Of a stretch of 64,000 bases of DNA, positions 5,476 through 40,255 are shown piece after piece. Under the pieces are notes generated by a model that saw nothing but the letters and a program-made list of their open reading frames with translations, was not told where the DNA came from and did no database searches. This DNA comes from Mesorhizobium sp. SOD10 (GTDB lineage Bacteria; Pseudomonadota; Alphaproteobacteria; Rhizobiales; Rhizobiaceae), in the NCBI GenBank assembly GCA_000824805.1, contig CCNA01000006.1, positions 620,001 to 684,000 on the forward strand. The letters are read 5' to 3'. The number at the start of each line of letters is the position of its first letter. Position 1 is the stretch's first letter. The position numbers and the translations under genes were made by a program.

Positions 5476-5485
5476 GGACTACCAA

Positions 5486-5974: not shown

Positions 5975-6028
5975 CCTGACGCGGTTGAAACCGCAGACTT
6001 CTCACCAACCGGAACCGAGGAGAAAAAA

Positions 6029-9539: not shown

Positions 9540-9590
9540 ACCTACACCGTATCCCCGTGCCAAGAGGGATGGCTCGAAGGAGAATCACTC

Positions 9591-23775: not shown

Positions 23776-26043
23776 TCAGCCCCCGCTCAATATGTCGAGG
23801 ATCGAGGTCTGGCGCTTCTTGGTCGGACCGCCGACATCGCCGGGCGGCACCGGATGCTTGATCGAGGCGGTCGACCCGCTGTCGCTCGGCATGTCGAAGC
23901 CTCCGGCATCGACGGTCTCAGCCGGTCGTGTGGTCCGCGCCTGGCGCGCTGGTGCCGGCGCCTGGGCCACGGGCGCCGGCTGGCCGACGGCCGCGGGCGG
24001 CGCTGGCGGCGCCTGCGAGGCGTCCGCCGAAGGGATCTCGTCGGGCACGATCGTATCGGACGGCGTCGACTTCCAGGTGCCGGGCAGCGGCCGCACAGGC
24101 ACGCCCTCATGCGCGGCCACCATGAATTCGTGCCAGGCCTGCGCCGGCAAGGCGCCGCCGGTGACCTTCTTCATCGGGCTGCCGTCGTCATTGCCAAACC
24201 ACACGCCGGTGGTGAGATTGGCCGTGTAGCCGACGAACCAGGCGTCGCGCGAATTCTGGCTGGTGCCGGTCTTGCCCGCCGAAGGCCAGTTGAACGCCGC
24301 CTTCTTGGCGGTGCCAACCTCGACGGTCCCGGTCATCATCGAGTTCATCATGCCGACGATATCGGCCTTGATGACGCGCGGCGCGCTGCCGCCGCTGTTC
24401 TCGTAGAGCACCTTGCCGTTGGCGGTGGTGATGCGCTGGATGAAGTGAATGTCCGGCTTGTAGCCGCCATTGGCGAAGGGCACATAGGCCGCGGTCAGCT
24501 CCAGCGGCGTGACTTCCGATGTGCCGAGCGCGATCGATGTGTTGGCCTGCAGGTCGGACTGGATGCCCATGCGATGCGCGGCTTCCACCACGGCGTCAGG
24601 TCCCACTTCCATGGTGAGCTGGGCGGCCACCGAGTTGAGCGACTTGGCAAGAGCCGTGGCCAAAGTCACCTTGCCGTAATATTTGCCGCCGTAATTGTCG
24701 GGCGTCCATTTGCCGATTTTGATCGGCGCGTCGTTGCGGATGCTGTCCGGCGTGCGGCCGGCCTCCAGCGCCGCCATGTAGACGAAAGGCTTGAAGGCGG
24801 AACCGGGCTGGCGACGCGCTTCCGAGGCGCGGTCGAACTGGCTGGTCGAATAATCATAACCGCCGACCATGGCGCGCACCGCGCCGGAATCGTCGATCGA
24901 CACCAGCGCCCCTTGGCTAACGTTGAGCTTCTTGCCACTCTCGTCGATCAGCCGGCGGATCGACTGTTCTGCAAGCTTCTGCAGGTTGAGGTCGACGGTG
25001 GTGTTGATGACGATGTCGCCGCGCACATCGCCGATCAGGTCCGGAAGCTCGTCCATCACCGTGTCGGCGACGTAATTTTCCGAGCCGGTCCAGTAAGAGG
25101 GCGCGCGCGTTGCCGGCGCGCTCAGCGCGGTCTTGTATTCCTTGTCGCTGATCTTGCCTTCCTCGCGCATGGCCGCGAGCACGAGCTGCGCGCGCTCTTC
25201 GGCCGCTTTGGGATCGCGCGCCGGCGACAACTTGGACGGCGCCTTGAGCAGGCCCGCCAGCAACGCGGCTTCCGAGAGCGTCACGTCGCGCGCGCTCTTG
25301 CCGAAATAGCGTCGTGAGGCCGCCTCGACGCCATAGGCGCCCGAGCCGAAATAGACCCGGTTGAGGTACATTTCGAGGATCTGGTCCTTGCTGTGCTTGT
25401 GCTCGAGCCAGAGCGCGAGCAGCACTTCCTGGACCTTGCGTTCCAGCGTGCGGTCCGGCGTCAGGAACAGGTTCTTGGCCAGCTGTTGCGTCAGCGTCGA
25501 GCCGCCTTGCGAGAAATGCCCGCCGATGAGATTGGTGGCCATGGCGCGCGCCAGGCCGATCGGGTCGACGCCGAAATGCGAATAGAAGCGGCGGTCCTCG
25601 ATGGCGACGACGGCCTCCGGGATATAGGGCGACATTTCATGCAGGCTGACGGCCTCGCCGCCCGAGGCGCCGCGATTGGCAATCAGCCCGCCATCGACCG
25701 AGACGATCTTGATGTTGGGCGCGCGGTCCGGGATCGACCATGTCGTCGCCGCCGGCATCTTGGCGCCGTAATAGACCACGATGCCTGCCGCCGCGATGCC
25801 GCCCCAGATACAGAACACGAAGCACCAGTAGACCAGGCGGGTGGCGATGCCGAACAGTCCGCGCCGGCTGCGATCGCGGCCGCGACCGCGTGATTTCGCC
25901 TTTGCGGATCTGCCCTTTGCAGCGGACTTGCGGGTGCGCGGCACGACGCGATCCTCCTCGCTCACCGAAAAGCCATCGGAGGATTTCGCGCGCTGCGACC
26001 CCTCGAAGCTCGGTTCGATGCGACTGTCTCTGCGGTTCGCCAT
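23776..26043 (-). CDS. Class A penicillin-binding protein (PBP1A-type transglycosylase/transpeptidase)
   Basis: A 755-residue bifunctional peptidoglycan synthase. A basic cytoplasmic N-terminus (KSAAKGRSAKAKSRGRGRDRSRR) and one membrane anchor (~60-90) precede the GT51 domain (AIEDRRFYSHFGVDP, GGSTLTQQLAKNLFL, YLNRVYFGSGAYGVE). The transpeptidase domain has the SxxK box GSAFKP, the SLN triad and KTGTS. The C-terminal ~110 residues are a proline/alanine-rich disordered tail. Start at ATG 26043 (MANRRDSR), with AAGGGC upstream. It marks the left chromosomal flank of the mobile island. Confidence 0.9.
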   Translation of the reverse strand: MANRRDSRIEPSFEGSQRAKSSDGFSVSEEDRVVPRTRKSAAKGRSAKAKSRGRGRDRSRRGLFGIATRLVYWCFVFCIWGGIAAAGIVVYYGAKMPAATTWSIPDRAPNIKIVSVDGGLIANRGASGGEAVSLHEMSPYIPEAVVAIEDRRFYSHFGVDPIGLARAMATNLIGGHFSQGGSTLTQQLAKNLFLTPDRTLERKVQEVLLALWLEHKHSKDQILEMYLNRVYFGSGAYGVEAASRRYFGKSARDVTLSEAALLAGLLKAPSKLSPARDPKAAEERAQLVLAAMREEGKISDKEYKTALSAPATRAPSYWTGSENYVADTVMDELPDLIGDVRGDIVINTTVDLNLQKLAEQSIRRLIDESGKKLNVSQGALVSIDDSGAVRAMVGGYDYSTSQFDRASEARRQPGSAFKPFVYMAALEAGRTPDSIRNDAPIKIGKWTPDNYGGKYYGKVTLATALAKSLNSVAAQLTMEVGPDAVVEAAHRMGIQSDLQANTSIALGTSEVTPLELTAAYVPFANGGYKPDIHFIQRITTANGKVLYENSGGSAPRVIKADIVGMMNSMMTGTVEVGTAKKAAFNWPSAGKTGTSQNSRDAWFVGYTANLTTGVWFGNDDGSPMKKVTGGALPAQAWHEFMVAAHEGVPVRPLPGTWKSTPSDTIVPDEIPSADASQAPPAPPAAVGQPAPVAQAPAPARQARTTRPAETVDAGGFDMPSDSGSTASIKHPVPPGDVGGPTKKRQTSILDILSGG

Positions 26044-26169
26044 GCGCCCTTGCTTGTCTGTCCCCAATCCCGATGGCGTTCGGATTGAAGACTAGATGCG
26101 GCGGTTTAAAGGCGGGTTAAATTGATGGCCGCCCAGCCATTTGAAATTCCTTGCGAATTTCTTAATCCG

Positions 26170-27405
26170 TTACCGCGCGTTACCGCTGCCGTTACCGCTC
26201 TGTTCACGGCGCTTAAGCCGCGCCTCGGCAAAGCGGTCGGCGGCTTCCAACACGGCGCGATCATACTTCTCTGTCGTCTTGGTCCCGGTGTGCCCGGCGA
26301 CCTTGCTGGTATCGTCCAGCCTGGCGCCCGACGCCCTGCCCTCCGTGATACCGGACGCGCGCAGATCGCGAGCCCACAAGGTCGCCGGCAGGCCCGCCGC
26401 TTTGCGGTCCACCGTCCAGCGCTGCGCGAAGATCGAAGCCCGCCATGGCAGGCCGTTTTCTTCCGAAACGATCATTGGGCCAGTGCGCTGCTCAACCGGC
26501 CAGTGCTTCAACTCTTCCATCACCATCGGCGCTTTCTGCAGCGAATAGGAAATACTCGCTCCGGAGCTGTCGGCGGTCTTGGACGGCGTGTAGTGAAGCA
26601 CCATGTCCGCGTCGATGTCTTCCCATCGCAGGCCGAACCATTTCAGATCTCGATCGGCATCAAGGATTTCTGAAATACCACCCATGTCCATCGGCCACCA
26701 TTGCCCAATTACATCCCAAAGCCGCAAAACCGTCTCGAAGCACAGGGCGTAGGCAAGCGCCGATGATGGCCGGCCGTTCCGGTGGGCTGCGGCACGTGCA
26801 GCGATGATCTGTTGTGCCGACGCGGACTGGTTGCGCGGTTTCGGGTGCGGCAGCGTCTTGGCGGTCGCGCGCATGACGGCTGCCAGCGTTAAACAGCCTT
26901 CTAGTCTCATCATGATCCCGAAGCTCACCGCGGCAAACAGCACTGCGCGCGCCGTGGTGGCGGCGGCGAGGTATCGGCCATTCTCCGACCACACGTCGTG
27001 CCAGTCCATGAGATCGACGCCAGTAGTTTGATCGATACGGACGCTGCCGATGTGGCCCTTCAGGTTCTTCAGATAGTGATTGTAAGGCCGGAGCGATCCA
27101 GGTCGTAGCTTCCGATAGGTGCTTCGCGGGTGTGTCTCATAGATCATCAGCAGCGACTTGATCGAGCCATCGAACTTCAGCGGATCGGCACGGTAGCCGG
27201 TACGCCAGAGAAGCATTTCCGCTTGCAGGGAATCGCACTTCGCCTTCAGCATTTCGGGCTGATCGGCGAGATAATACAGGTTCACCGTTTTCGGGATATA
27301 GCCGTTCTTCACATCAGCTTCGTCGGCAATCCAAAACGGCGTCCTGCCGTTGGCGCGCTTAATCCACTTCAGCCCTGGTGCCTTGGTCTGCTCTTCGTCT
27401 TCCAT
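26170..27405 (-). CDS. Tyrosine recombinase (integrase) of the left island segment
   Basis: A 411-residue protein. The C-terminal catalytic part shows LWARDLRASGITEGRASG (Arg box II), VAGHTGTKTTEKYDRAVLEAADRFAEAR (H...Tyr nucleophile region) and a SAM-like helical core domain upstream (LRPYNHYLKNLKGHIGSVRIDQTTGVDLMDWH). The catalytic Tyr is most likely the Y of EKYDR. Codon use is less GC-biased than the pbp gene. It overlaps the upstream small DNA-binding gene by 37 bases. It lies 126 bases from the pbp start codon, at the edge of the island. Confidence 0.82.
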   Translation of the reverse strand: MEDEEQTKAPGLKWIKRANGRTPFWIADEADVKNGYIPKTVNLYYLADQPEMLKAKCDSLQAEMLLWRTGYRADPLKFDGSIKSLLMIYETHPRSTYRKLRPGSLRPYNHYLKNLKGHIGSVRIDQTTGVDLMDWHDVWSENGRYLAAATTARAVLFAAVSFGIMMRLEGCLTLAAVMRATAKTLPHPKPRNQSASAQQIIAARAAAHRNGRPSSALAYALCFETVLRLWDVIGQWWPMDMGGISEILDADRDLKWFGLRWEDIDADMVLHYTPSKTADSSGASISYSLQKAPMVMEELKHWPVEQRTGPMIVSEENGLPWRASIFAQRWTVDRKAAGLPATLWARDLRASGITEGRASGARLDDTSKVAGHTGTKTTEKYDRAVLEAADRFAEARLKRREQSGNGSGNAR

Positions 27406-27701
27406 TGACTTGCGTCCGCTCTGCCTGGCGCCGCTGCCGGCGACTGGGCGGTGCCAAAATAACCTTCGTAGAAACGGCGTACGAGAGCAACAGGCCGACC
27501 GCCATGGAAATCGTCAACCGCCGGGAAGCCCGGCTTGCAAGATAGGGTCGGCAGTCGCTCGCGCATCCACCTTTCCGCATTCTCGCGACCGACAATCGCC
27601 TGGGCGATCTGCTGATCGGTAGCGAACAATGGCAAATCGTCGAGCCGCAGTGGTGTTTCGGCGACCGTTCTCGGACGCATCAATAACTGAGTTTTTTTCA
27701 T
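27369..27701 (-). CDS. Small DNA-binding protein, possible excisionase partner of the integrase
   Basis: A 110-residue protein. The segment LPLFATDQQIAQAIVGRENAERWMRERLPTL looks like a helix-turn-helix, followed by CKPGFPAVDDFHGGRPVALVRRFYEGYFG, which resembles the wing of AlpA/excisionase-like proteins (fixed spacing GFP...R.V). It precedes and overlaps the integrase, the usual position of an excisionase or a repressor. The identification is by position and fold-like pattern only. Confidence 0.6.
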   Translation of the reverse strand: MKKTQLLMRPRTVAETPLRLDDLPLFATDQQIAQAIVGRENAERWMRERLPTLSCKPGFPAVDDFHGGRPVALVRRFYEGYFGTAQSPAAAPGRADASQWKTKSRPRHQG

Positions 27702-27889: not shown

Positions 27890-28535
27890 CTAACTTTTCG
27901 TCGTCCGCTCGCTGATCCGACCAATATCTTCCAAGGCTGAGCGGATTTGCGGCCAGGGAAGTTCATCATCATCCTTTGACGGCTGCCCTTCCCTGAGTAT
28001 GGCATCGAGCTTAGCTACCACTCCGGCAAGGGAACTTTGCTGGCGTTTCTGACAACGCCTTAAGCAACGCCTCCGCGCGATCGGCCGCCTCACTTTCAGC
28101 GCGCAACGCGGCAGAATAGCCAATTGCACGATCGAAGGCATCCCATCGCCTTTGATGAGCTAGCAGCTCGGCCTCGACCTTCGCGCCAATTGCTGGATCG
28201 ACAGAACCTTCGCAAAGCATATCGCGAAGCGAATCCAGTGAATTCAGCGTTACGGTACTACCATCGGCAAGCTCGATCATCACATTGGGAAAGCCAACAA
28301 TTTCAGAGAGCTTCCACTCCAAACGCTGCTGCTCAACAGTCAATTGTTTAGTCTCTTCGTGAGCGGCTTGCCACTTTCGCCAAGTCGCCAAAGCAGGATC
28401 ATTCGATTGGTGTCTTTCGAAAACGCTGTCGGCAACAGCTTTTGGCTTCGATCCCGCCATTGCAATTGCCGTTCGCGCAAGTAGGCTCCTGCGGGTGACG
28501 GGATGCAGAGTCGTGCTATTGTCGGAATCAGCCAT
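27890..28535 (-). pseudogene. Hypothetical protein gene, frameshifted at 28036-28038
   Basis: The first frame gives a 174-residue product starting MADSDNSTTLHPVTRRSLLARTAIAMAGSKP. It ends soon after ...ALLKALSETPAKF at 28011. A second frame continues directly with SSLAGVVAKLDAILREGQPSKDDDELPWPQIRSALEDIGRI and stops at 27890. Removing one A from the AAA run (TTT on the plus strand, 28036-28038) restores one frame of about 214 residues with TPASSLAG at the joint. Hence it is an inactivated gene or a homopolymer sequencing error. It starts with a twin-Arg-like RRSLL but the function is unknown. A 14-bp palindrome (AGCTCCATGGAGCT, 27878-27891) overlaps its end; otherwise 27702-27889 holds no gene. 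Confidence 0.65.
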
Positions 28536-28569
28536 GATCCGAGCTCCCTGAAGCTTAGACGTGGTCAGG

Positions 28570-28664
28570 CTAGGCGAGGTGCACTAACACCGCGTCTAGC
28601 CGAACCCCGGACCAAAGAGGGGCCAAGGGTATCTTTGATACCTTTGGATCATAGAGGAATGATC
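28570..28664. promoter_or_regulatory. Cluster of dyads upstream of the XRE regulator gene
   Basis: Three dyads stand side by side. CTAGGCGAGGTG/CACCGCGTCTAG (28570-28581/28588-28599, two mismatches); CAAGGGTATC-TTT-GATACCTTTG (28624-28646); and GATCAT-N6-ATGATC (28647-28664). They lie between the divergent frameshifted gene and the XRE gene, so they may be autoregulatory operators. Confidence 0.45.
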
Positions 28665-28682
28665 TAAAGGGATCAAGAAGAA

Positions 28683-28916
28683 TTGGTAACTGCGGCACAG
28701 ATGCGGGCGGCCCGAGCGTTGATCGGTCTCTCACAAGCGGAGCTTGCCCGTCGGGCTGGCGTCTCTATTCCGACAATAAAGCGCTGCGAGAGCGACAGTG
28801 AGCGCACTGCGGTCGTGGCTGCCGAGACCCAAGATAAGATTCGGGCTGTCCTTGAGACAGAGGGGGTAGAATTCACTAATGGCAATCGCCCTGGAGTCAG
28901 ATTGCTCCGCACCTAA
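28683..28916 (+). CDS. XRE-family HTH regulator
   Basis: A 77-residue protein, essentially a single helix-turn-helix domain: QMRAARALIGLSQAELARRAGVSIPTIKRCESD, then RAVLETEGVEFTNGNRPGVRLLRT. This C-terminal pattern (ALE-GVEF...G-GVRL) is common in small rhizobial XRE regulators of mobile elements. The start is placed at TTG 28683 because the family begins MI/VTAAQMRAAR; an ATG at 28704 would remove that stretch. Upstream dyads suggest autoregulation. It may belong to either of the two integrase modules. Confidence 0.7.
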   Translation: MVTAAQMRAARALIGLSQAELARRAGVSIPTIKRCESDSERTAVVAAETQDKIRAVLETEGVEFTNGNRPGVRLLRT

Positions 28917-29014
28917 CCGGCCAATGATCCATGAACGCGGTGCGGCAAGAAGATCACGCCCCGATCTCATGCTCCAAGCTCGGGTTGAGCCAGAAGCATT
29001 CGTTCCGGTTTGGA

Positions 29015-29190
29015 TCGATGGAAGCAAAAGCCGCCATTGCGCTACTAGTCAAAGGCGGCACCGTCCTGAAGAGCGCGTATGGCAAGCCCTTCTCAGAAAA
29101 GAGCTTGACAGGCATGATTCGGCATTGGACCCTCCAGGCCGGAATTCCTGAGGGCTACACGCTTCATGGATTGCGCCGCAGGTTTTCACC
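29015..29190 (+). pseudogene. Remnant of a tyrosine recombinase
   Basis: The peptide AIALLVKGGTVLKSAYGKPFSEKSLTGMIRHWTLQAGIPEGYTLHGLRRRF matches the C-terminal third of phage-type integrases: xxxGKPFS...MRxWxxxAGxP followed by the catalytic box HGLR. Neither the N-terminal part nor the following Tyr region is present: similarity stops near 29190 and unrelated sequence follows. This is a broken integrase, probably truncated when the neighbouring segment was inserted. Confidence 0.6.
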
Positions 29191-29703
29191 TAAGCAGTAC
29201 TTTTGGTCCGCGGTTTTGAACCGTGGGCAAAGCGCGGGCGAGGCGTGGGCAAAGCCGCTTTTTTCGCAATGAAATCAAAGGTCATGACGACGTGTCCCCG
29301 CAGATGACGTACGGCGGCTCTTTGGCCTTGTGGCAGAGCACAAAATCGGCCCGTACTCCGGAGCATCGTTAGATGGCGCGGGGACACGCTATTGAACCTC
29401 GTCCAGGAAGCGGATAGGCGTAAGCGGCCATCGCGTCCGGACTTGAGTGCGCTGTCATTGTGAACGCGGAGGATGTCTCGCTCGCCACCCCGAGGCTCGG
29501 TTCCTGTGGCCGGAGTTCGCGCTGGATTCTGTGGGTTCTGACTGACTCCTCAGCTCGCTTGAGACGATAGTTAGCGCCCCTTTAAGTAAAGATGTTGCGT
29601 CAAAGGCCGCCAAATATTGTTCTTTACGTGCCGTCCTCGGGTTGTTTGACCCACTAAGCAGTGGCATAAAAGTGACCGGGCAGCTTGGGGGTAAACGCCA
29701 CAA
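29191..29703. other. Non-coding stretch before the Wadjet operon, with an inverted repeat pair
   Basis: About 510 bases without a supported gene. An 11-bp inverted repeat, CGTGTCCCCGC at 29291-29301 and its complement at 29378-29388, encloses about 76 bases. A direct repeat CGTGGGCAAAGC occurs at 29222-29233 and 29244-29255. The last 120 bases are AT-richer and should contain the jetA promoter. A GGGGG run is 10-14 bases before the jetA ATG. Confidence 0.5.
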
Positions 29704-31230
29704 ATGGCACTTTTTCGTTATCTTAATGATGACGCGTTTCTGATCTTTTCACGCAAATTCCGATTCCTCTATGAGGCGGCGTTATTAGATGCCTACGAGC
29801 GCTTCTTCTCTCGTGGAGCATCCTTCCCTACGCCTCAGGAAGTCGTCCACGCAATCTACGATCTCATCAAACGAAAGCCTGAGCTTCTTGCCGAGGGCGA
29901 CGATGTTGGTGAAGGCCTTCCCGACTTAGTGTCAAAGCGCCGTCGGCGGCTGAAGTTTGCAGGCGAGGCGAATGAGGCTGCGGAAACAGCGTTGCGGGTC
30001 GCAAGTGTTGCCTACCAGAAGCTGATCCAGACCGGTTGGCTCGAAGAGGAAGAATATGGGCTACGAGTGACCGTAGATATGCCCATGGGGGCAAGCTTGG
30101 TCATGCAGCTCCTGTCCAGTCTGAAGTCCGACGTGAGCCAGCGCTTTGGTGGCGTCGTTGTCAACGTCAAACAAAGTCTGGAGCTGGCGGCAAGACTCCA
30201 GCCAGGATCTTCAGGAAAGGACGCCGTGGATGCTGCATATGCCGTGGTGCAGGCGAGAGAACACGCCACCGCCTTTCTCAAGACGCTCAGGGCGATCCTC
30301 TCGGACCTGAGGCGGATCCGCCGGACTATTATGGAATCGCGGAGCATGCGCGAGAGGGTAGACGCTTACTTTCAGGAATTCATCGGCGAATTGGTTCTAA
30401 AGGACTTCCAAGCCATCCACACTTTCAATCATCCCTTTAGATTCAAGGACCACATCCTTGACCTGGCTCGCGATATCTCTCTCCACCCCGAAATCATGAA
30501 GATGATCGCTTCGGGCTATGTCGAGAGCGGAATGGCCGATACCCGCGAGGATGGGCTTAGAACAGCAGAGACCGACCTTCTATCGATTCAGGAAGTCTTT
30601 GATGGCATCGGCGAGATGTTCGACCGGATCGCCATCTTTCGCCGGCAGCTCGAACAGCGACTCCGCAACACGGTCAAATATGCGGAACAAGGGAGCAGTG
30701 GCATTTCGAGCCGGGCCTCATCGCTCATACACCGGCTTCACAAGGTAATGGACCAGCGCCCTACCCTTTCTGAGTTCGCTTGGGTACCCCTCCCGGTCGA
30801 GCCGATGCGAACGCCGTGGTCGGAAAGGCACCTCGCGCAGCCGCGGCAACCACGTAAGGCGCTGGAGTCAATGGCGGTCCCACCCAAAGTCCTGGATCCG
30901 TTGCTGGCGCTGCGTAAGAAACTCAAGAAGCAGTACATGGAAAGAATCGTTCCAGACGAGAAACAACTACTGCAATGGCTAAATGATAAAGTTCCGCTGG
31001 CGGTGACGAAAGAGGCACGTTTCCTGGAGATAGAAGACGTAGACTCATTCATTGCATTCGATGTGATCCGACGGTTTACCAAACCGGGCGAAGTTCCGCC
31101 TTCTATCGCGGCGGCGTTTGAGATCGTGGATGACTCTCAGGGACATCAGCATGATAGCGAGTGGATAAAGTGCGGTAACTTCCTCATCCGGAGACGGGCT
31201 GCCATGGCTGGAGGCGTGGATGCTGACTGA
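29704..31230 (+). CDS. jetA: Wadjet system protein JetA (kleisin-like)
   Basis: A 508-residue protein. It begins MALFRYLNDDAFLIFSRKFRFLYEAALLDAYERFF, with a winged-helix-like N-terminus (PTPQEVVHAIYDLIKRKPELL), a helical, coiled-coil-rich middle (QVFDGIGEMFDRIAIFRRQLEQRL) and a C-terminal domain ending in ...CGNFLIRRR. In Wadjet, JetA is the kleisin-type subunit that bridges the JetC ATPase and JetB. The order A-B-C-D and overlaps with the next genes support the call. I cannot assign Wadjet type I, II or III with certainty; the N-terminus seems closer to the DUF5716-type (type III) JetA. Confidence 0.75.
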   Translation: MALFRYLNDDAFLIFSRKFRFLYEAALLDAYERFFSRGASFPTPQEVVHAIYDLIKRKPELLAEGDDVGEGLPDLVSKRRRRLKFAGEANEAAETALRVASVAYQKLIQTGWLEEEEYGLRVTVDMPMGASLVMQLLSSLKSDVSQRFGGVVVNVKQSLELAARLQPGSSGKDAVDAAYAVVQAREHATAFLKTLRAILSDLRRIRRTIMESRSMRERVDAYFQEFIGELVLKDFQAIHTFNHPFRFKDHILDLARDISLHPEIMKMIASGYVESGMADTREDGLRTAETDLLSIQEVFDGIGEMFDRIAIFRRQLEQRLRNTVKYAEQGSSGISSRASSLIHRLHKVMDQRPTLSEFAWVPLPVEPMRTPWSERHLAQPRQPRKALESMAVPPKVLDPLLALRKKLKKQYMERIVPDEKQLLQWLNDKVPLAVTKEARFLEIEDVDSFIAFDVIRRFTKPGEVPPSIAAAFEIVDDSQGHQHDSEWIKCGNFLIRRRAAMAGGVDAD

Positions 31231-31870
31231 GTTCGAGGAGGTCGAGGCCCGATACGGCGGGGACAAGGGTGCCGACCTTCGGAAAGCTTGCCGATACCTC
31301 CTCCGTCATCAATTCGTCTATTCGGGCGACCGGGGTGTGGCGACCGTCTATGATGTAATTATGGATAGTCGCTTCAGAAAAGTGATCGACAATTTCTTTG
31401 ATTGCATTGGCTACCGCGTCCACCGCGAGCAAGACGAACAGTGGGCGGGGATTGTGCTTGATGATGAGGAGATGTCGTCAACACCAAAAATGAGGGCTGA
31501 CGAGACTATCGTGCTTCTGGTGGCAGCGGCTCATTGGCAGGACGAAGCGAACCAGGGCAACGTTGAAGAGCGTGCGACGGTCTTGACCACATTTAACGCC
31601 CTCTACGAGAAATACAGGGAAATGGCCGAAAGGGGCACAAAGATGCTTGTGTCCCAGTCGAGGTTCCAAGACGTTCTTGAGGATCTTGCTTCGCGCAACC
31701 TGATCTGGCTCGGAGAGTTCGATCGTGTCCTTCAGGATCGGGAGGTGGTGGTCCGGCCGATAATCAAGCTCGTTTCCGGATCCGACGCGTTGAGGCGCAT
31801 TGAGGAGCAGGTTGCGCTGGAAGACTATGAACCCCGCCAGCTCGGTCCCGTCGAGGAAAAATTGCAATGA
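31220..31870 (+). CDS. jetB: Wadjet system protein JetB (KITE-like)
   Basis: A 216-residue protein with tandem winged-helix character: ADLRKACRYLLRHQFVYSGDRGVATVYDVIMDSRFRKVIDNFFDCIGYRVHRE, then TPKMRADETIVLLVAAAHWQDEANQG, as in MukE/DUF4194-type JetB subunits. JetB binds the kleisin JetA in the SMC-like complex. Its ATG overlaps the end of jetA by 11 bases, and its stop overlaps the jetC start (ATGA). Both overlaps imply coupled translation and fixed stoichiometry. Confidence 0.78.
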   Translation: MLTEFEEVEARYGGDKGADLRKACRYLLRHQFVYSGDRGVATVYDVIMDSRFRKVIDNFFDCIGYRVHREQDEQWAGIVLDDEEMSSTPKMRADETIVLLVAAAHWQDEANQGNVEERATVLTTFNALYEKYREMAERGTKMLVSQSRFQDVLEDLASRNLIWLGEFDRVLQDREVVVRPIIKLVSGSDALRRIEEQVALEDYEPRQLGPVEEKLQ

Positions 31871-34800
31871 TGGAACTCGTGCATCTCACGCTGGTGAATT
31901 GGCATTCGTTCACTGTCGAAGATATTCCGGTTAGCGGCCACGTCGGTGTCCTTGGTGAAAACGCGTCGGGCAAATCAACAATCCTGGACATGATCCAGGT
32001 GGTGCTCACCGGCGCCAGCGGACGCTACATGAACCTCAATCCAGTCGCTGGTGAGAGTCGTCGCAGAAGCGGTCCGAGGCGCACAGTACAGGGGTACTGC
32101 CTCGGTGCCCGTGGAGAGGGCGATTTTCGGCGCGAAGCCTGCCTTACCTATGTGGCCATTAGTTTTCGAGACGCCGATGGAGTGAAGCCCGACTTGACGG
32201 TAGGCCTCGCCATGGAGGCAAGGAAGACACAGCCAGCCGAAACCATACTCGGCCGTTTCGTCGTCCGCGGCAAAATATTGACAACAGCCAATTTCTTACG
32301 TGAGCGGGAAGGAAGGCAAGAATTCGCGCAATGGGAGGAAGTAAGGCAATCGCTGGAAAGGGAATGCGGTAACGGTTTCGTAAACCATCGCGACAGCGCC
32401 ACGGACCACATCCGGGAATATATGCGTGACTTGGTTCCACGATCGGCGCCGACTTCCGGAAACGCCGCCGCGCTTGCAAAGGCGATCGTGAACGGTATGA
32501 CGCTTAATCAGGGCCTGTCCGCAACAGACTTCGTCAGGAACTATATCCTCGAGGAGTCTCCGATGAAGGTCGGCGAGCTACGAGAGTCGTTGAAGACTTA
32601 CCGACAAGTCAACCAGACTATCAAGAACATGCGGGAGCGTGCGAAGCGGCTGAAAGTGGTCAAGGCGCGAGCGGAAGATTTTAGAAACTTCCTCAATGAA
32701 CACGTCGAGGAGGACTGGATCAGTCGCAAGGCGAGGTACCTCGCGGCCTCGGCGGCGATGCGGGCACTCGAAGAAGAGGTCAAGGAAGCCGAGGCATCTC
32801 TTCTGGCCGAGAGCGAGGAAATTAACGACCTGACCACTTCGATCAACGAAGCGAACCAGGATGTGCACCGCATCATCAAGCAGATCGAAGCGATCAAAGC
32901 CAAGGTGGGCATTGACGATCTTAACAAGATGGCCGAAAGCCACTCCTTTTCCGCCGCAGATTGCCTCAAACGGATCTCTGAACGAGTGAAGCATATGCAG
33001 CGGATCGCCGCCGCGGCCGAAGCACTCGGAAAGGGTGAATCAAGCTCCCGCGAATTGGTCGCTCACGCGTCCGCGGCGGCCGAGGCGGTCAAGCGTGGGA
33101 ACACGGAAGCCACGGCAGTGATCGAACAAGCGTTCCTGGCGTCGCTCCCCGTCACCGCCGAGAGAATTGGCAGGGCGCGCAGTGAGACGGAAGCCGCTTT
33201 GCACACCAAGAACAAGGAGGTCGACAAGCTGTCTCGGTCTATCGAGGCCGCCGCTTCCGATTCACGGGATTCTCACCTCGGCGACCATACCCGCGAGTTG
33301 ATGAGGCTCCTTCGCATGGCCGGGATGGCTCCGAGAGCGCTTTGCGACATCATTGACCTTATCGACAAGGATTGGGGACAAGCGGCTGAAGGTCTTCTTG
33401 GTCGAGATAGGGAAGCGATCTTCGTCGATCGCGACCACATCCACACGGCAACGACGATCCTGAGAGAAAACAGGCGGGATCTACGCCAGGCTTCCCTGGT
33501 CAGCCTAAACAAGCTCGAGCGATACAAAGATCCGGTCGAGTCAGGTTGGTTCCCTTCGCTCTTCAGGTCCGATGACCAAGACGCAGTCGCCTTCCTGCAG
33601 CGCAGATATGGCAATGTGCGGCTAGCCCGCACCATGGAAGAGTTTAACCAACCCGGCCGCGCCCTCATGGCTGACGGCCTTTACGATGATGGGCTGTTAC
33701 GGGGGACCCGCCTGGAGGAAGCCTTCCGCCTTAAGATCGGTAAGGCGGCGCAGGAGCAACTTTTCCTGGAGCAGAAAAGGCGGTTGGAGGTTCTGCGGGA
33801 GGAAATCGAAACCCTGTCCCAGCGCAGGCGCATCCTTTCCGAGGTTGACCGCTCCGTTGCCCTTGTGACTTCGCCTGCGGACGGCGAGACGGTGGCAGGC
33901 CTGCTTGAACGAGCGCAACAGCAGGAGAGGCTGGCAGGAGAGGCTCGATCCAGGCTGGAGGCGGTCGATCAAGGCGACCTGAAACGCCTATATGAGCTTG
34001 AAGAGAAGAAGAAGGTCCAACAGGCCTATGTCGACGCCAGAAATGTCGAGCTCAACTCAATCCAGAAGAGGCAGGGAGCTTACCAGAAACAAGCTGAAAC
34101 CGCGAGAAAGACGCTCACGGGCCTTACCAACCAAGAGGGTTCGCGCCATTTGCGGAATCTCGCCCGCCGCATGTTCCAATATAGCTGGCGCTTGACGGCC
34201 GCTGTGCCAGCTAACCGCAGATACCGGGAGAGGATCGCGGGTAAACAAATCCCAAGTGACCCATCCGCCCATTACGAAGCACTGGCCGGGATCCATCGTG
34301 CGATCGGGCAGCGCGCGGAGGATCGCTCCAAGCAGGCAAAAGATAGAATGATGGAGGCCGACAGGAATGTGCGCGCCGCCATGAGGAGCTATTTTGACGT
34401 AGCTCCCATAAGCTCGGAGGTGGGAGCAGAAAGCGAGATCCTGAAGGACATCCTGCCCTGGGTGGAGGCCACGCTACGCGATATCGAAGAGAACGAGCTC
34501 ACGCGGCATGAAGCACTGGCAGCTGAAGCTTCCGAGCGAGTCTCATCTATCTTTCGCGGCGAGTTCGTCAACTCTCTCCACTCACGCATCTCCAAACTGA
34601 AGAGAGATATCGACTCGCTGAACCATAGTCTCCGCAATCACACATTCCACGGCGAGCGATATTCGTTCAGCAGGACGCAAGTGGCTCAGTACGCGCCGAT
34701 CTTGAAAGCGGTCGAGATCTACGTGACTTCCGAGGATGCGCTGGATCTTCTGTTCAAGGGTGAGATACCCGAAGGCTCCCCCCACAAACCCGTGCTCGAC

Positions 34801-35331
34801 GAGGTGAAGCGCATCCTTGAGGATCCCGATACCGAGTTCGACAGTTTTGAGGACTATCGGAGCTTTTTCGTTTTCGAAATTCACATGGAGAACCTCGATA
34901 CCGGACACAAGACACGCTGGGAAACTCGCCGTGGCACGGGTTCCGGAGCCGAGCAACAAGTCCCGCTTTACGTTGCCATCGGTGCCTCGCTGGCCTCCGT
35001 TTATGGGACCGCCGAAGGAAGATCGGGATCGCAACTTGGAATGGCACTTGCCGTCTTCGATGAAGCCTTTGCCAAGCTGGACGGCAAGAACCAGCGGCAA
35101 ATGATGAGCTTCTATGAGAGCCTAGGCCTGCAGGTGATCGTGGCTGCGCCACCCGAGCGGCGGCCCTCACTGCTCGGCTATATGCATGCCATTGTTGAGG
35201 TCGACAACATTGGCAATGGGCAATCTGAGACGACAGTAGTCCAAGTCAAGGAAAAAGCTCGCAAGGAGCTGCAGCGGATCAACCCCGAACTCATGGATGA
35301 TGAAGCGCTGCGTAGGATGGCAGCCGAGTGA
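31867..35331 (+). CDS. jetC: Wadjet system SMC-like ATPase JetC (MukB-like)
   Basis: A 1154-residue SMC-type protein. The Walker A motif is GENASGKST (residues 30-38) after VGVLG; long coiled coils occupy ~230-460 and ~650-960 with a hinge between. The ABC-type signature is RGTGSGAEQQVPLYVAIGAS (G1025-S1026-G1027), and Walker B is LAVFDEAFAKLD with D1065/E1066. JetC extrudes DNA loops and detects small circular DNA, so that JetD can cut it. The GTGA overlap with jetD and the ATGA overlap with jetB keep the operon continuous. Confidence 0.9.
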   Translation: MMELVHLTLVNWHSFTVEDIPVSGHVGVLGENASGKSTILDMIQVVLTGASGRYMNLNPVAGESRRRSGPRRTVQGYCLGARGEGDFRREACLTYVAISFRDADGVKPDLTVGLAMEARKTQPAETILGRFVVRGKILTTANFLREREGRQEFAQWEEVRQSLERECGNGFVNHRDSATDHIREYMRDLVPRSAPTSGNAAALAKAIVNGMTLNQGLSATDFVRNYILEESPMKVGELRESLKTYRQVNQTIKNMRERAKRLKVVKARAEDFRNFLNEHVEEDWISRKARYLAASAAMRALEEEVKEAEASLLAESEEINDLTTSINEANQDVHRIIKQIEAIKAKVGIDDLNKMAESHSFSAADCLKRISERVKHMQRIAAAAEALGKGESSSRELVAHASAAAEAVKRGNTEATAVIEQAFLASLPVTAERIGRARSETEAALHTKNKEVDKLSRSIEAAASDSRDSHLGDHTRELMRLLRMAGMAPRALCDIIDLIDKDWGQAAEGLLGRDREAIFVDRDHIHTATTILRENRRDLRQASLVSLNKLERYKDPVESGWFPSLFRSDDQDAVAFLQRRYGNVRLARTMEEFNQPGRALMADGLYDDGLLRGTRLEEAFRLKIGKAAQEQLFLEQKRRLEVLREEIETLSQRRRILSEVDRSVALVTSPADGETVAGLLERAQQQERLAGEARSRLEAVDQGDLKRLYELEEKKKVQQAYVDARNVELNSIQKRQGAYQKQAETARKTLTGLTNQEGSRHLRNLARRMFQYSWRLTAAVPANRRYRERIAGKQIPSDPSAHYEALAGIHRAIGQRAEDRSKQAKDRMMEADRNVRAAMRSYFDVAPISSEVGAESEILKDILPWVEATLRDIEENELTRHEALAAEASERVSSIFRGEFVNSLHSRISKLKRDIDSLNHSLRNHTFHGERYSFSRTQVAQYAPILKAVEIYVTSEDALDLLFKGEIPEGSPHKPVLDEVKRILEDPDTEFDSFEDYRSFFVFEIHMENLDTGHKTRWETRRGTGSGAEQQVPLYVAIGASLASVYGTAEGRSGSQLGMALAVFDEAFAKLDGKNQRQMMSFYESLGLQVIVAAPPERRPSLLGYMHAIVEVDNIGNGQSETTVVQVKEKARKELQRINPELMDDEALRRMAAE

Positions 35332-36509
35332 AATTCACCGATCCGATTGCACTTCTTTCTTATCTGCTGGATAGGCACGAAGACGGTCGGGCAGGCGCAC
35401 GTGCTTATCCGGACAGCGGCGCCTTTTCAAATATCGGAGAGGCTGACCGTTTCCGGAAGAAGCTGGAAGAGGCAAGCCGGGCGGGTGCAATCGAGCTTCG
35501 AATGGAGATGGGGCGCCGGCGAGCCGGCGAAATCAAGTTCGTGCGCATCGCCGACGTGGCGAGGCTCTACTGTTTCGTCGAACGAAAACCTTCCAGCGAG
35601 CGCTCGGCGTCAGCGCTCGAGGATCTATTTCGTCGAGCTGAGCTGGCTGTCCCGTTCGCTGAGCATGCGCGGGACGCTGCTGAAGCCTGGTCCAGAAATC
35701 GGCGGTGGGCGGGAATTGCTCCCGGAGACATAGGTTCGCTAGAGCGTGCGCTACTCCTCGCGCAAGCGATATACAGACGGCAACACTTAGGACTCGACTA
35801 TCGCACTTTCTCCAGAAGGGCCGTTTCCGATAGCAAAGCATTGGAACGGCTGGAGGCAGCCGTCGCAAAGGTCCTTCGAGGTGTTGGCGCGAACATCCCG
35901 GAGGGCGCCACGCCCCGCGAAGCACTCGGTGCACTTGGGCTGGAAAAGGTGCCTCCTCCCCTCCTCCTTTCAGGACCGATCACTTTTGGAGCGTCCCAGC
36001 CTGACGTATCCTTCCTTGGCGTCCCCGCAGAAGCAATCAACACCGTCGGCTTCAGCCGCACCCCGGAATACGTCCTCGTAGTAGAGAACTACACGAGCTT
36101 CGTCAGGCACGTGACTGAGGCAGATCCGGACCGCCGAGGACTGGTCATCTACGGCGGCGGCTATCCGTCGACGGGAGTTCAGAAGGCATTAGGCTTGATC
36201 GCCGGTCGCTTTCCCGACGACGTACCCTTTTACCACTGGTCCGACATCGATCCCGATGGCATCTGGATCTTCCTGACAGTTGAGAGAGCATTCGGCCGCA
36301 GACTACTCCCGCACCTCATGACCGTCGACTTGGCCGAAAAGCACGGTAGTAAGCCAGATCAAAAGGCAAGCAGAGTAGCCAGGGCTGAAGGATCGGTCCT
36401 CTTTGATTTGATCGCGTACCTTGCAAAGCCAGATGCAAAACACTTAGAGCAGGAAGAACTCGATCCTATTATTCCACGCCTACACCAGAGCGAGTGGCGA
36501 GCGTCGTGA
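35328..36509 (+). CDS. jetD: Wadjet system nuclease JetD (Toprim/DUF2220)
   Basis: A 393-residue protein. The N-terminal ~200 residues are helical (DUF3322-like). A Toprim domain follows: EYVLVVENYTSFVRHV with E253, LVIYGGGYPSTG, and HWSDIDPDGIWIF with D306/D308, the metal-binding residues. In Wadjet the JetD dimer cleaves DNA bound by the SMC complex, as in topoisomerase VI A-type folds. Start codon is GTG at 35328, overlapping the jetC stop. It is the last gene of the operon; the next 230 bases hold no supported gene. Confidence 0.88.
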   Translation: MKFTDPIALLSYLLDRHEDGRAGARAYPDSGAFSNIGEADRFRKKLEEASRAGAIELRMEMGRRRAGEIKFVRIADVARLYCFVERKPSSERSASALEDLFRRAELAVPFAEHARDAAEAWSRNRRWAGIAPGDIGSLERALLLAQAIYRRQHLGLDYRTFSRRAVSDSKALERLEAAVAKVLRGVGANIPEGATPREALGALGLEKVPPPLLLSGPITFGASQPDVSFLGVPAEAINTVGFSRTPEYVLVVENYTSFVRHVTEADPDRRGLVIYGGGYPSTGVQKALGLIAGRFPDDVPFYHWSDIDPDGIWIFLTVERAFGRRLLPHLMTVDLAEKHGSKPDQKASRVARAEGSVLFDLIAYLAKPDAKHLEQEELDPIIPRLHQSEWRAS

Positions 36510-36740
36510 TGCAAACCAATTTTTGTCCTCGCCCAGTTGATCGGCATAGCTGGCGAAGGCGCTCCGCTTCCAAAACTGACCATCGCGCGGGTCGTCCGAA
36601 GTCCGAAGACCTGAAGGGGCAGGTGAACTGGCGGTACTGGTTTGCTGGTGCGGTCGAGACATACCTACAAACTGTAAGGCGTTTCGCTAGCGGGGATATC
36701 TGGTCGTAATTGAAGGCTGTACGAGACTTCGGATATTTGC
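36510..36740. other. Non-coding gap after jetD
   Basis: Short open frames in both directions overlap each other here, none with recognisable content or good codon use. I see no terminator hairpin directly after jetD. It may hold the promoter of the alpA-like gene. Confidence 0.4.
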
Positions 36741-37139
36741 GTGACTGTTGACGGACAACCAACCCTTCGGGTGTCACAAATGGTCAAACAGCAACAGTCT
36801 TCTGAGTTCGACAAACCGGAGGATACCACAAATCGCCAGCAGAGCCTGTTTCCGACTTTGCCCCACATTGCGGCGAGTAGGGTAATGCGAACCATACGCC
36901 GGCCGCAGCTGAGAGAGATCGTTCCGCTGTCCGACACGACAATCTATGAGATGGAGCAACGCGGCGAATTCCCGCGCCGCTTCAATCTCAGCCCCCGCTG
37001 TGTTGTCTGGGACTTGGAAGAAGTCGAAGCTTGGATCGAAGAGCGGCGGAATGCGTCAAATGCGGGAAAAAGCGAGAGCCGGCCAGCTCCCAACGTAAGA
37101 CTACGAAAGACCCGACCGGTCAAATCGGATCGAGCGTAA
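36741..37139 (+). CDS. AlpA-family excisionase/regulator
   Basis: A 132-residue protein. The second half is the AlpA/MerR-like winged helix: TIRRPQLREIVPLSDTTIYEMEQRGEFPRRFNLSPRCVVWDLEEVEAWIEERR, followed by a basic tail. AlpA-type proteins activate excision or control integrase expression in P4-type elements. The GTG at 36741 is tentative; an in-frame ATG lies at 36780. Its 3' end overlaps the 3' end of the convergent integrase gene by 20 bases. Confidence 0.8.
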   Translation: MTVDGQPTLRVSQMVKQQQSSEFDKPEDTTNRQQSLFPTLPHIAASRVMRTIRRPQLREIVPLSDTTIYEMEQRGEFPRRFNLSPRCVVWDLEEVEAWIEERRNASNAGKSESRPAPNVRLRKTRPVKSDRA

Positions 37140-38373
37140 TCGCTGCTCCCGTAGGCGGCTGAAGTGCAGGCGTGTGCTTCTTGCCTGCCGTCCACGAGTC
37201 GACCATATCAGCCCACTCCTGCAGCATATGACGACGCTGCAACTCATATTCAGCCCTATTGTAGACGCCCCGCGATGAGCGGCCGTCTTCGTGGGCAAGA
37301 CATTTTTCAATCCAGTCGCGATTGAACCCGATTTCGTTCAAGAGTGTAGACCCGGTACGCCGGAGATCGTGCACCGTGAAGGGCGCAAGTGGAAGATCTT
37401 GCTTCCTTGCCCGCTCGACAATCGCTGCAGTCACGCGATTGAAGGTCGCGCGTGACATTGTTTCATCGGCATCGTAGCGAGACGGCAGCACATACCGCGA
37501 ATTAGCCGCGCAAGTTTTAAGCGCTATCATGATGTCGAGCGATTGCCGTGACAAGTACACATTATGCGGCTTCTTCCGCTTCATGCGTTCTTTTGGTATG
37601 TTCCAGACGGCGTTCTCGAAATCGACCTCCTCCCACGTTGCGTCGAGCAGTTCACCCTTGCGGACCATCGTGAGCAAGATAAGCTTTAGGCCAAGCCGAA
37701 TAGTCGGCAGCGTTGGCACATTCTCCAACTCTTTCAGCATGATCCGGATCTCTGCGGGCGACAGTGCCCTATCTTTCGCCTCGAACGTGGCTATCGAGGC
37801 CGGCCCCACTTCGTCCGCAGGATTGCTAATCTTTTTGCCATGCAGAATGGCGTGACCATAGATCTGCTTAACGATATCCCGGATATGAATGGCTGTTGCA
37901 GGCGCGCCGCGCTCCTTCACCCTCACGCAGAGTGCCCGCAGGTCGTCAGCTGTGATCTCGGTTAGGAGCCTTTTCTGCCAAATCGGCAAAATGTCTCGAT
38001 CGAAAATCGCTTTCCGCATCGAACGGGTGCTCTCCGCCATCTTTGCGTCCTTGAACCAGCGTCTACTTGCATCGCCGAACGTCGCCGTGGCTGGCAGCCG
38101 ATGCTTTTCGCGCTGCTTTTCCTGCGCGGGGGACTTTCCGGCCGCTACCATCTTCCGCGCTGAGAGGCAGCGGTCGCGCGCCTCCGCCAGCGTGATACCT
38201 CCCTCACCGTAGCGGCCCAGCGTCAGGGTCTCTCGCCGGCCATTCATCCGGTAGTCATACCGAAATGCAATCTGCCCCGTTGGAGAAACCATCGCGTACA
38301 TACCGTCACGATCGGAAACCTTGTATTTTTTCTCCTTTGGTTTCAGCTTCTTAAGTGCAATGTCGGTTAACAT
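37120..38373 (-). CDS. P4-type tyrosine integrase (DUF4102 N-terminus)
   Basis: A 417-residue integrase. The N-terminal DUF4102 domain reads MLTDIALKKLKPKEKKYKVSDRDGMYAMVSP and RMNGRRETLTLGRYGEGGITLAEAR. The catalytic residues sit in LLTMVRKGEL (Arg I), HDLRRTGSTLL (His-x-x-Arg II) and LAHEDGRSSRGVYNRAEYELQRR (His/Tyr). Start at ATG 38373. Its upstream region, with TACCGTCA repeats, faces the 3' end of guaA 317 bases away, the usual arrangement for islands that integrate into the end of guaA. Confidence 0.92.
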   Translation of the reverse strand: MLTDIALKKLKPKEKKYKVSDRDGMYAMVSPTGQIAFRYDYRMNGRRETLTLGRYGEGGITLAEARDRCLSARKMVAAGKSPAQEKQREKHRLPATATFGDASRRWFKDAKMAESTRSMRKAIFDRDILPIWQKRLLTEITADDLRALCVRVKERGAPATAIHIRDIVKQIYGHAILHGKKISNPADEVGPASIATFEAKDRALSPAEIRIMLKELENVPTLPTIRLGLKLILLTMVRKGELLDATWEEVDFENAVWNIPKERMKRKKPHNVYLSRQSLDIMIALKTCAANSRYVLPSRYDADETMSRATFNRVTAAIVERARKQDLPLAPFTVHDLRRTGSTLLNEIGFNRDWIEKCLAHEDGRSSRGVYNRAEYELQRRHMLQEWADMVDSWTAGKKHTPALQPPTGAAITLDPI

Positions 38374-38689
38374 GGCCCCACAAAAAATTGGGAAACACAA
38401 ATCGATCTAACGCCAATTTTACCGTCAAAAATTTTACCGTCAACCTTTGTTGGTAATCTTTATATTTCAAAGGCTTGGCTGGAACAGTTAAAATGACCTA
38501 GAAATTCGGCGACATGACGGTATGGGCGGAAAGAGGGAGGGCGGAAAAGAACGTACCGTCAGATTTACCGTCAGATGCTTCCGCTTAGGGGCGATAGTTG
38601 GCGATAGAGCCTAAAAGGAAGATTGATTTACTTCAGAGGCTTACGGAGCTTGCCTAGATAGCCACCGAAAGTCAGAGAACGACACCGCC
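38374..38689. promoter_or_regulatory. Probable attachment-site region with TACCGTCA arm-type repeats
   Basis: No gene lies in these 316 bases. The octamer TACCGTCA occurs four times directly (38420-38427, 38435-38442, 38554-38561, 38566-38573) and once inverted (38515-38522). Pairs are 12-15 bases apart. GGCGATAG is also repeated near 38586-38605. These look like arm-type integrase binding sites; the core crossover site is expected at the last bases of guaA (38690-38710). I did not find a second copy of the guaA end at the left side. Confidence 0.55.

Positions 38690-40255
<1,566 letters not shown>

What the first reader, a model, noticed from the sequence alone, without database searches (positions are those of the whole stretch)
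29704..36509. Complete Wadjet (JetABCD) anti-plasmid operon on an integrase island
Four genes in order A-B-C-D overlap by 11, 4 and 4 bases. JetC keeps Walker A (30-38), the GSG signature and Walker B (D1065/E1066). JetD keeps the Toprim acids E253, D306 and D308. All active sites look intact, so the system is likely functional. A plasmid-restricting system carried on a mobile island in a rhizobium, where symbiosis plasmids and islands move, is of ecological interest. The subtype is not clear to me (features seem closer to type III than I).
Basis: partly seen in the sequence, partly recalled or inferred. Interest (0 to 1): 0.65.

Follow-up and report, generated by a model that had tools for sequence, protein, structure and literature searches.

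The report
Type I Wadjet on split mobile element
A soil bacterium (Mesorhizobium) carries an intact-looking type I Wadjet, a known kind of plasmid-destroying defence, on a 12.6-kb segment flanked by two different integration sites whose partner ends lie elsewhere in the genome, which suggests that the defence travels on a mobile element that sits in the chromosome in separate pieces.

Summary
Four intact genes, jetA-B-C-D (29704-36509), overlap by 11, 4 and 4 bases, and every active-site residue named is present. The lean towards type III is wrong: every best profile match is type I (JetC 1623 bits against JetC1, 36 against JetC2). A JetD model has the C. glutamicum Wadjet nuclease and P. aeruginosa JetD as best PDB matches, with low TM-scores.

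The island is more unusual than described. It is 12.6 kb (26106-38705) and ends in two different integration sites: a guaA-type integrase at a 16-bp core at the end of guaA, and a second integrase at a 16-bp core upstream of a penicillin-binding-protein gene. In 12 relatives with both loci on one contig they are 0.87-4.5 Mb apart. The partner of each core lies on another contig, one beside conjugation genes, the other beside a Zorya type I operon. Two further strains share the segment. This fits one region of a bipartite integrative and conjugative element, in plan like the tripartite ICEs of Mesorhizobium and bipartite ones of Bradyrhizobium, with a site pair I did not find described.

Activity, excision and transfer are untested. 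Wadjet is reported to spare circles above about 50-100 kb, so an effect on symbiosis elements is not expected.

The parts
29704..31230 (+). jetA (kleisin), 508 aa, Wadjet type I
   Evidence: PADLOC JetA1 740 bits; Pfam JetA PF18982 E 2e-65
31220..31870 (+). jetB (KITE, MukE-like), 216 aa
   Evidence: PADLOC JetB1 298 bits; Pfam DUF4194
31867..35331 (+). jetC (SMC ATPase), 1154 aa; Walker A 30-38, signature GSG 1025-1027, Walker B DE 1065-1066
   Evidence: PADLOC JetC1 1623.5 bits against JetC2 35.9; residues checked
35328..36509 (+). jetD (Toprim nuclease), 393 aa, GTG start; E253, D306, D308
   Evidence: PADLOC JetD1 537.7 bits; Pfam JetD_C; model (mean pLDDT 86) matches PDB 8b7f and 7til best
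26106..26121 (+). core TTAAAGGCGGGTTAAA, left end of the segment (attL_P), upstream of the PBP gene
   Evidence: second exact copy on own contig C56:15731-15746; one copy in unoccupied G117
38690..38705 (+). core TCATTCCCACTCGATC, right end of the segment (attL_G) = last codons of guaA
   Evidence: second exact copy on own contig C28:82645-82660
26170..27405 (-). intP: tyrosine recombinase of the PBP site, 411 aa
   Evidence: PHROG integrase E 1.3e-15; homologues (E up to 1e-40) in 14 of 146 genus genomes, own included; in 10 of the 14 the PBP gene lies within the 1.5 kb fetched on that side
27369..27701 (-). rdfP: candidate excision factor directly upstream of intP, 110 aa (role by position only)
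   Evidence: conserved beside intP in 13 of 14 loci; no Pfam or PHROG match
28011..28535 (-). small orf, unknown
   Evidence: its DNA is present at about 85% in the G094 element; about 115 bp of it are missing in ORS3324 and ORS3359
28683..28916 (+). HTH (XRE-type) regulator, 77 aa, TTG start
   Evidence: Pfam HTH_31/HTH_3
28931..29272 (+). short integrase C-terminal remnant at the junction of the P-type and G-type parts
   Evidence: weak Pfam PF00589 E 0.023, below the curated cut-off
36741..37139 (+). AlpA-family excisionase candidate, convergent with intG
   Evidence: Pfam Phage_AlpA E 3.8e-12; PHROG excisionase
37120..38400 (-). intG: tyrosine recombinase of the guaA site, 426 aa
   Evidence: Pfam arm-binding, central and catalytic domains
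23776..26067 (-). flank: penicillin-binding protein gene (chromosomal)
   Evidence: Pfam Transgly and Transpeptidase
38690..40255 (-). flank: guaA, GMP synthase (chromosomal; 3' end is an insertion hotspot)
   Evidence: NCBIfam PRK00074 789 bits

Best explanation
The operon is a type I Wadjet. By analogy with studied members (inferred, not shown), JetABC, an SMC motor, reels in DNA. On a small closed circle its two motors meet and trigger JetD, whose Toprim site cuts the DNA, so small and medium plasmids are lost. The operon is cargo of a 12.6-kb segment (26106-38705). One end is the P site (16-bp core upstream of a PBP gene, integrase intP) and the other is the G site (16-bp core at the end of guaA, integrase intG). 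Because each core has its partner on a different contig beside element-like DNA, the segment is most likely one region of a bipartite integrative and conjugative element. The circle would insert at one site, and then recombination of its second attP with the second attB would split it and rearrange the chromosome. Shown: gene identity, subtype, intact residues, the two cores and their partners, and the same segment in two other strains. Inferred: anti-plasmid activity, the inversion, reassembly, transfer, and that the pieces on the two other contigs form one second region.
For: Type I profiles for all four proteins. Catalytic positions intact. JetD model's top PDB matches are JetD-type nucleases. 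Cores: TTAAAGGCGGGTTAAA occurs exactly twice in the own genome (C6 and C56), twice in ORS3359 (G057), once in unoccupied G117; TCATTCCCACTCGATC exactly twice in the own genome (C6 and C28); reversed-pattern controls 0. The junction sequences read chromosome-core-element on C6 and element-core-chromosome on C56. In 12 relatives that have both loci on one contig, PBP and guaA are 0.87-4.54 Mb apart, and the block normally upstream of PBP lies on C56 in this genome. ORS3324 and ORS3359, deposited separately, carry the same PBP-intP-Wadjet-intG-guaA segment at about 97.5-99%. C28 beside the partner core encodes VirB4-like, VirD4-like and DUF3363 proteins; C56 encodes ZorABCD. The convergence of intG with an AlpA-type gene and the small gene upstream of intP match what is reported for rdfG/intG and rdfM/intM of ICEMcSym1271 (PMC5882170, passages).
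Against: The genome is a draft of 61 contigs, so the second region is not seen as one piece; C56 and C28 may belong to different elements. fix-type and metabolic genes on C28:1-26 kb could be chromosomal. P-type elements exist alone (G094, about 31 kb) and G-type ones probably alone (G117, cores 396 kb apart, one with a mismatch), so the segment could be a fusion of two independent elements by ordinary recombination. G090 carries the Wadjet with intG at guaA on one contig and intP at PBP on another. All ICEs in the 41-genome survey of the genus carried trb-type clusters, vir-like ones only on plasmids (PMC8627217, section read); whether C28 is trb- or vir-like was not settled here. In G056 and G057 the guaA core itself differs by one base, and G057 has a third core-like place. 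rdfP matches no known excisionase family. Sequence searches of JetA, JetC and JetD against the PDB gave nothing at the thresholds used (E 0.1 for JetA and JetD, 1e-4 or 1e-5 for JetC); the JetD fold match has low TM-scores (0.34-0.37) and rmsd of 12-14 A.
Confidence: 0.72

Rival explanations
1. An ordinary type I Wadjet on an ordinary guaA island; the P-type end is a leftover of a second, independent element, and the two were joined by homologous recombination or a rearrangement. Nothing moves as a bipartite unit.
For: Relatives of both ends occur on their own (G094 P-type, G117 probably G-type); an integrase remnant at 28931-29272 marks the junction of the two parts; G090 has Wadjet and intG without intP next to them.
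Against: Both integrases, both companion genes and both ends are conserved as a unit in three strains, the cores with at most one change. In ORS3324 and ORS3359 a guaA-type core on another contig lies near sequence like the 0.3 kb at and after the last VirB-type frame of C28 (75-83% identity; the conjugation genes themselves were not looked at there).
Confidence: 0.3
2. The PBP-to-guaA junction is an assembly artefact.
For: The genome is a draft of 61 contigs.
Against: Two separately deposited assemblies (ORS3324 and ORS3359) have the same continuous segment.
Confidence: 0.03
3. JetABCD serves chromosome organisation (MksBEF-like) or copy-number control rather than plasmid defence.
For: Related complexes without the nuclease act on chromosomes (PMC10586767, passages).
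Against: JetD is present, its Toprim acids are invariant, and the operon is uncommon (12 of 146 genus genomes have any JetA match, 3 of these fragments only) and on mobile DNA.
Confidence: 0.06

Closest known systems
Wadjet type I (JetABCD; P. aeruginosa PA14, E. coli GF4-3, C. glutamicum MksBEFG)
   Same: Four genes, order A-B-C-D, type I profiles, SMC ATPase motifs, Toprim acids, JetD-like fold
   Different: Diverged beyond sequence matches to the solved structures; Walker A has A instead of R at residue 33 in this Mesorhizobium group (5 loci plus the window); no IFDR letters in JetB
Tripartite ICEs of Mesorhizobium (ICEMcSym1271 and kin; sites phe-tRNA, guaA, met-tRNA)
   Same: Region bounded by att sites of two different integrases; guaA as one site; excisionase candidate convergent with intG and a small gene upstream of the other integrase
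   Different: Second site is upstream of a PBP gene, not a tRNA gene; only two sites found; Wadjet and Zorya near the ends. Sequence relation of these integrases to IntG and IntM of ICEMcSym1271 was not tested
Bipartite symICEs of Bradyrhizobium (tRNA-Val plus ybgC)
   Same: Two sites, one small region (about 50 kb there, 12.6 kb here) and one larger
   Different: Other genus, other sites; no symbiosis role shown
Monopartite guaA ICEs and islands of Mesorhizobium
   Same: Related intG beside guaA
   Different: There both ends are expected to use the guaA core (seen here for G117 only); here the other end is the P site

Membership tests
Wadjet type I | Four adjacent genes jetA-B-C-D | tested here: met
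Wadjet type I | Proteins match type I profiles better than type II or III | tested here: met
   JetA1 740, JetB1 298, JetC1 1623 (JetC2 36), JetD1 538 (JetD3 24) bits
Wadjet type I | JetC Walker A, signature and Walker B intact | tested here: met
Wadjet type I | JetD Toprim acids intact and JetD/TopoVI-A-like fold | tested here: met
   fold match best by E-value but low in TM-score
Wadjet type I | Restricts small circular plasmids | not testable with these tools
   needs a plasmid assay
Wadjet type III | Best match to type III profiles | tested here: not met
   among the families shown (all for A, B and D; the best 25 of 43 for C) only JetD has type III matches, 24 bits at best against 538 for type I
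Polypartite (bipartite) ICE | Region bounded by att cores of two different integrases, with each integrase present | tested here: met
Polypartite (bipartite) ICE | Partner half-site of each core elsewhere in the genome beside element-like DNA | tested here: met
   C56:15731 and C28:82645
Polypartite (bipartite) ICE | Conjugation genes on the same element | tested here: inconclusive
   VirB4-like, VirD4-like and DUF3363 genes adjoin one partner core on C28; linkage to C56 and so to one element not shown
Polypartite (bipartite) ICE | Excision and reassembly into one circle | not testable with these tools
   needs qPCR of attP and attB
[quoted passage not shown]
   guaA present; the other end is at a PBP gene; no tRNA gene in the window

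The most novel reading that the evidence does not exclude
The Wadjet travels on a bipartite conjugative element, and the split arrangement protects the element from its own nuclease. The two ends of the 12.6-kb Wadjet segment carry different cores and should not recombine with each other, so the segment cannot pop out as a small circle. The only circle the element could form is the reassembled one. The held pieces add up to about 84-111 kb (12.6 kb here, 15.7 kb on C56, 56-83 kb on C28, if all belong to it), near or above the size that Wadjet is reported to cut. A mobile element could thus carry a weapon that destroys smaller competing circles while escaping it itself.
Probability: 0.3. Interest if true: 0.65.

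Novelty: new variant of a known kind. Interest (0 to 1): 0.45.

Why it matters
The Wadjet itself is an ordinary new member of type I. The platform is what matters. If confirmed, it adds a second kind of split ICE to Mesorhizobium, with an integration site (upstream of a PBP gene) that I did not see described, and with defence cargo at the ends examined. It would also allow a direct test of how a conjugative element can carry a nuclease that kills circular DNA: size of the circle, or control during transfer.

Tried and rejected
Type III subtype: rejected by profiles. Sequence search of the PDB with single proteins and with profiles of JetC and JetD gave no relevant match (one search gave only a chance-level hit, E 0.049), so a structure model was used for JetD. 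Looking for a second guaA core inside the window gave none, which led to the search of the whole genome. A direct-repeat scan of 26000-38900 showed no att pair among the 20 of 55 families listed, as expected if the two ends are different sites. Translated all-against-all comparison of guaA neighbourhoods was too noisy in this G+C-rich DNA and was not used. A chromosomal gene downstream of guaA could not be defined, because that side differs among the relatives looked at. The canonical tripartite ICE was considered and rejected as a filing, because the second site is not a tRNA gene. A third site on C28:1-82 kb was looked for: no tRNA gene there (one tRNA-Leu lies outside the core, at about C28:84.3 kb) and no match to intG or intP; an integrase of another kind would have been missed. 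Integrases near the other Wadjets: 4 of 46 loci had an ORF similar to intG or intP, a single-sequence search of limited reach with up to 10 kb on each side.

Counts: 146 genus genomes were searched with JetA (12 with any match: 6 at 91-100% identity including the own genome, 3 at 33-35%, 3 fragments only). 46 loci came from the scan of named genomes; 43 have all four jet genes and 39 of these have A over 480, C over 1100 and D over 370 aa. The conserved-motif counts used 41 JetC of at least 1100 aa and 43 JetD of at least 370 aa; shorter ones were dropped. Alignments used 17 JetD and 16 JetC chosen by hand from the window and these loci.

This changed the distance range and several qualifiers. 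The confidence of the best explanation went from 0.75 to 0.72 and that of the fusion rival from 0.28 to 0.30, because the survey's ICEs all had trb-type clusters and the type on C28 is unsettled.
Full report
Observation. PADLOC profiles identify them as JetA1, JetB1, JetC1 and JetD1 with E-values from 7.9e-90 to 0. Pfam agrees: JetA, DUF4194, SbcC_Walker_B with AAA_29, and JetD_C. The search of the whole genome with JetD found one copy.

Subtype. The lean towards type III is not borne out. The best type II or III scores shown are 36 bits (JetC2) and 24 bits (JetD3), against 1623 and 538 for type I; JetA and JetB have no type II or III match in their lists; for JetC the best 25 of 43 families were shown. 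A structure model of JetD (mean pLDDT 86, pTM 0.66) has as best PDB matches 8b7f (nuclease from C. glutamicum, E 4.1e-10) and 7til (JetD from P. aeruginosa, E 6.1e-9), followed by topoisomerase VI A chains. TM-scores of the first two are low (0.34-0.37), which may reflect domain orientation or model error. The catalytic acids are invariant in the 17 JetD aligned. The Walker A loop is GENASGKST here and in 5 of 41 relatives, all Mesorhizobium, against GENRSGKST in 35 and GENTSGKST in 1.

Mechanism. From the literature (PMC10586767, passages): JetA, B and C are kleisin, KITE and SMC; JetD has a Toprim domain; the complex is proposed to extrude DNA until its motors meet, which happens on small circles, and then JetD cuts. 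Circles over about 50-100 kb and linear DNA escape. A study in Clostridium (PMC12287153, passages) reports an apparent cut-off of about 40 kb in genomes that hold both Wadjet and large plasmids. I infer the same action here; it is untested. Mesorhizobium symbiosis ICEs are about 350-850 kb (PMC9973854, passages), so they are not expected targets.

The island, right end. intG (37120-38400, minus) lies beside guaA. The 3' end of guaA is an insertion hotspot. Of 60 relatives searched besides the own genome, 59 had a match to the guaA end region, two of these (G072, G168) of only 28-33 bases. In the 15 neighbourhoods fetched by place, 10 have DNA related to the intG/AlpA module next to guaA and 5 have none, and what lies further out differs. 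An AlpA-family gene (36741-37139) is convergent with intG.

The island, left end. A second tyrosine recombinase, intP (26170-27405, minus), lies beside a PBP gene. Homologues at E up to 1e-40 occur in 14 of 146 genus genomes, own included; in 10 of these 14 the PBP gene lies within the 1.5 kb fetched next to it, in 4 it does not; a small gene that I call rdfP is next to intP in 13 of 14. In G094 a P-type element of about 31 kb sits between the PBP gene and its normal neighbour. It shares 2.7 kb (26168-28906) with the window at about 85%. No Wadjet DNA was found in it, and G094 is not among the genomes with a JetA match.

Two different ends. In 12 relatives that have both on one contig, the PBP gene and guaA are 0.87 to 4.54 Mb apart (0.87 to 2.97 Mb by the shorter way if those contigs are circles). 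For the other relatives, with the two on different contigs, nothing can be said. In the window they are 12.6 kb apart. The chromosomal block that normally lies upstream of the PBP gene is on contig C56 of this genome. Reading the junctions: the unoccupied site in G117 is ...GGTTTAAAGGCGGGTTAAAGCAGGG...; the window has the same up to TTAAAGGCGGGTTAAA and then element DNA; C56 has other DNA up to TTAAAGGCGGGTTAAA and then the chromosomal GCAGGG.... The 16-base core occurs exactly twice in the own genome, twice in ORS3359 (G057) and once in G117, with no exact match in G056, G094 and G076; in G056 and G094 variants with one and two changes stand at the same place beside intP. The guaA core TCATTCCCACTCGATC likewise occurs exactly twice in the own genome, at guaA and on C28:82645-82660. 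Reversed-pattern controls gave none.

What lies beside the partner cores. C56 inward of the core carries ZorA, ZorB, ZorC and ZorD of Zorya type I, a UvrD-type helicase and other genes. C28 inward of the core carries genes like VirB4 (CagE_TrbE_VirB), VirD4 (T4SS-DNA_transf) and a DUF3363 protein, with ThiF, JAB and E2-like genes, a KAP NTPase and a UvrD-PDDEXK protein. The VirB5 to VirB10 identities of the small frames next to VirB4, and the name relaxase for DUF3363, are my reading or recall, not search results. C28:1-26 kb holds fix-type and metabolic genes whose status, cargo or chromosome, is open.

Shared by other strains. ORS3324 (G056) and ORS3359 (G057) have the same PBP-intP-Wadjet-intG-guaA order, at 97.5-99%. 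ORS3359 also has 8.3 kb of the C56 end at 99%, with zorA, through the core and 23 bp beyond; the rest of the Zorya operon was not in that query. ORS3324 shares only the last 0.2 kb of that end, so its cargo there differs. Each has a guaA-type core on another contig (exact in ORS3359, one mismatch in ORS3324), with sequence 75-83% like that around the C28 core and at the end of its last VirB-type frame; ORS3359 has one further core-like place. The identity of G056 and G057 with these named strains is inferred from equal contig lengths and positions. In N.Ca.IN.010.08.1 (G090) the Wadjet, the AlpA gene and intG are at guaA, but intP at a PBP gene is on another contig, so the pieces also occur apart.

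Comparison with known elements. [quoted passage not shown] passages). Bradyrhizobium has bipartite symICEs (PMC9174649, passages). The plan here is the same, but the second site is new to me. Section 14 of PMC8627217, read whole, names sites at tRNA genes, guaA, radC and dusA and counts 16 in all; its Table S7 was not seen, so the full list was not checked. The same section says that all ICEs found carried trb-type clusters, with vir-like ones on plasmids; the type on C28 was not settled here. The search for Mesorhizobium with Wadjet gave one paper, on Rhodococcus (listing), and searches for bipartite or tripartite ICEs with guaA gave no paper describing this pair in what I saw (listings). Defence terms that I searched in PMC8627217 had no occurrence. 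This is not proof of absence from print; most subscription journals are not held.

Verdict. The Wadjet is type I and ordinary in itself. Its carrier, a segment bounded by two different integrase sites with partner ends elsewhere, is best read as one region of a bipartite ICE. That reading is supported at the sequence level and untested as a moving unit.

Noticed in passing
own genome G000:C56:2178-9695 (L173): Complete Zorya type I operon (ZorA, B, C, D) inward of the partner core of the P site, with helicase genes on either side.
   Followed up: partly
own genome G000:C28:35955-39549 and 57330-58712 (L175, L174): DUF3363 protein, E2-like and ThiF/JAB-like genes, and nearby a KAP NTPase and a UvrD-PDDEXK protein on the conjugation-gene side; possible further defence genes.
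   Followed up: partly
own genome G000:C28:1018-8971 (L225): Genes with COX1, FixG_C and copper-type P-ATPase domains (fixN-, fixG-, fixI-like by my reading) on the same contig as the conjugation genes.
   Followed up: no
L011-L012, L014-L015 (G024:C1 about 6.917 Mb; G027:C11 about 44.8 kb): JetA remnants (residues 1-35 and 33-90 in two frames, 80-86% identity): a decayed copy of the same Wadjet.
   Followed up: no
L021 (Microvirga sp. VF16 plasmid pMVF16-1, 1.4 Mb): A relative of this Wadjet sits on a megaplasmid, fitting the reported escape of very large circles.
   Followed up: no
G117:C1:1389702 and 1786068: Two guaA-type cores (one with a mismatch) 396 kb apart in the same orientation: probably a large monopartite ICE at guaA.
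   Followed up: no
L100 (G110) positions 10702 and 12656: The guaA core is nearly duplicated about 2 kb apart, a very small element or remnant at the hotspot.
   Followed up: no
L020 (N.Ca.IN.010.08.1) 661-9591, minus strand: Two very large frames (1149 and 1731 aa) beside the Wadjet with only weak matches to defence profiles (mad8; PDC-M54A).
   Followed up: no
window about 28287-28401: About 115 bp present here and missing in ORS3324 and ORS3359, inside the small orf 28011-28535.
   Followed up: no
window 26067-26121: The core lies some 40 bp upstream of the longest-frame PBP start, so the insertion may change the expression of that gene.
   Followed up: no
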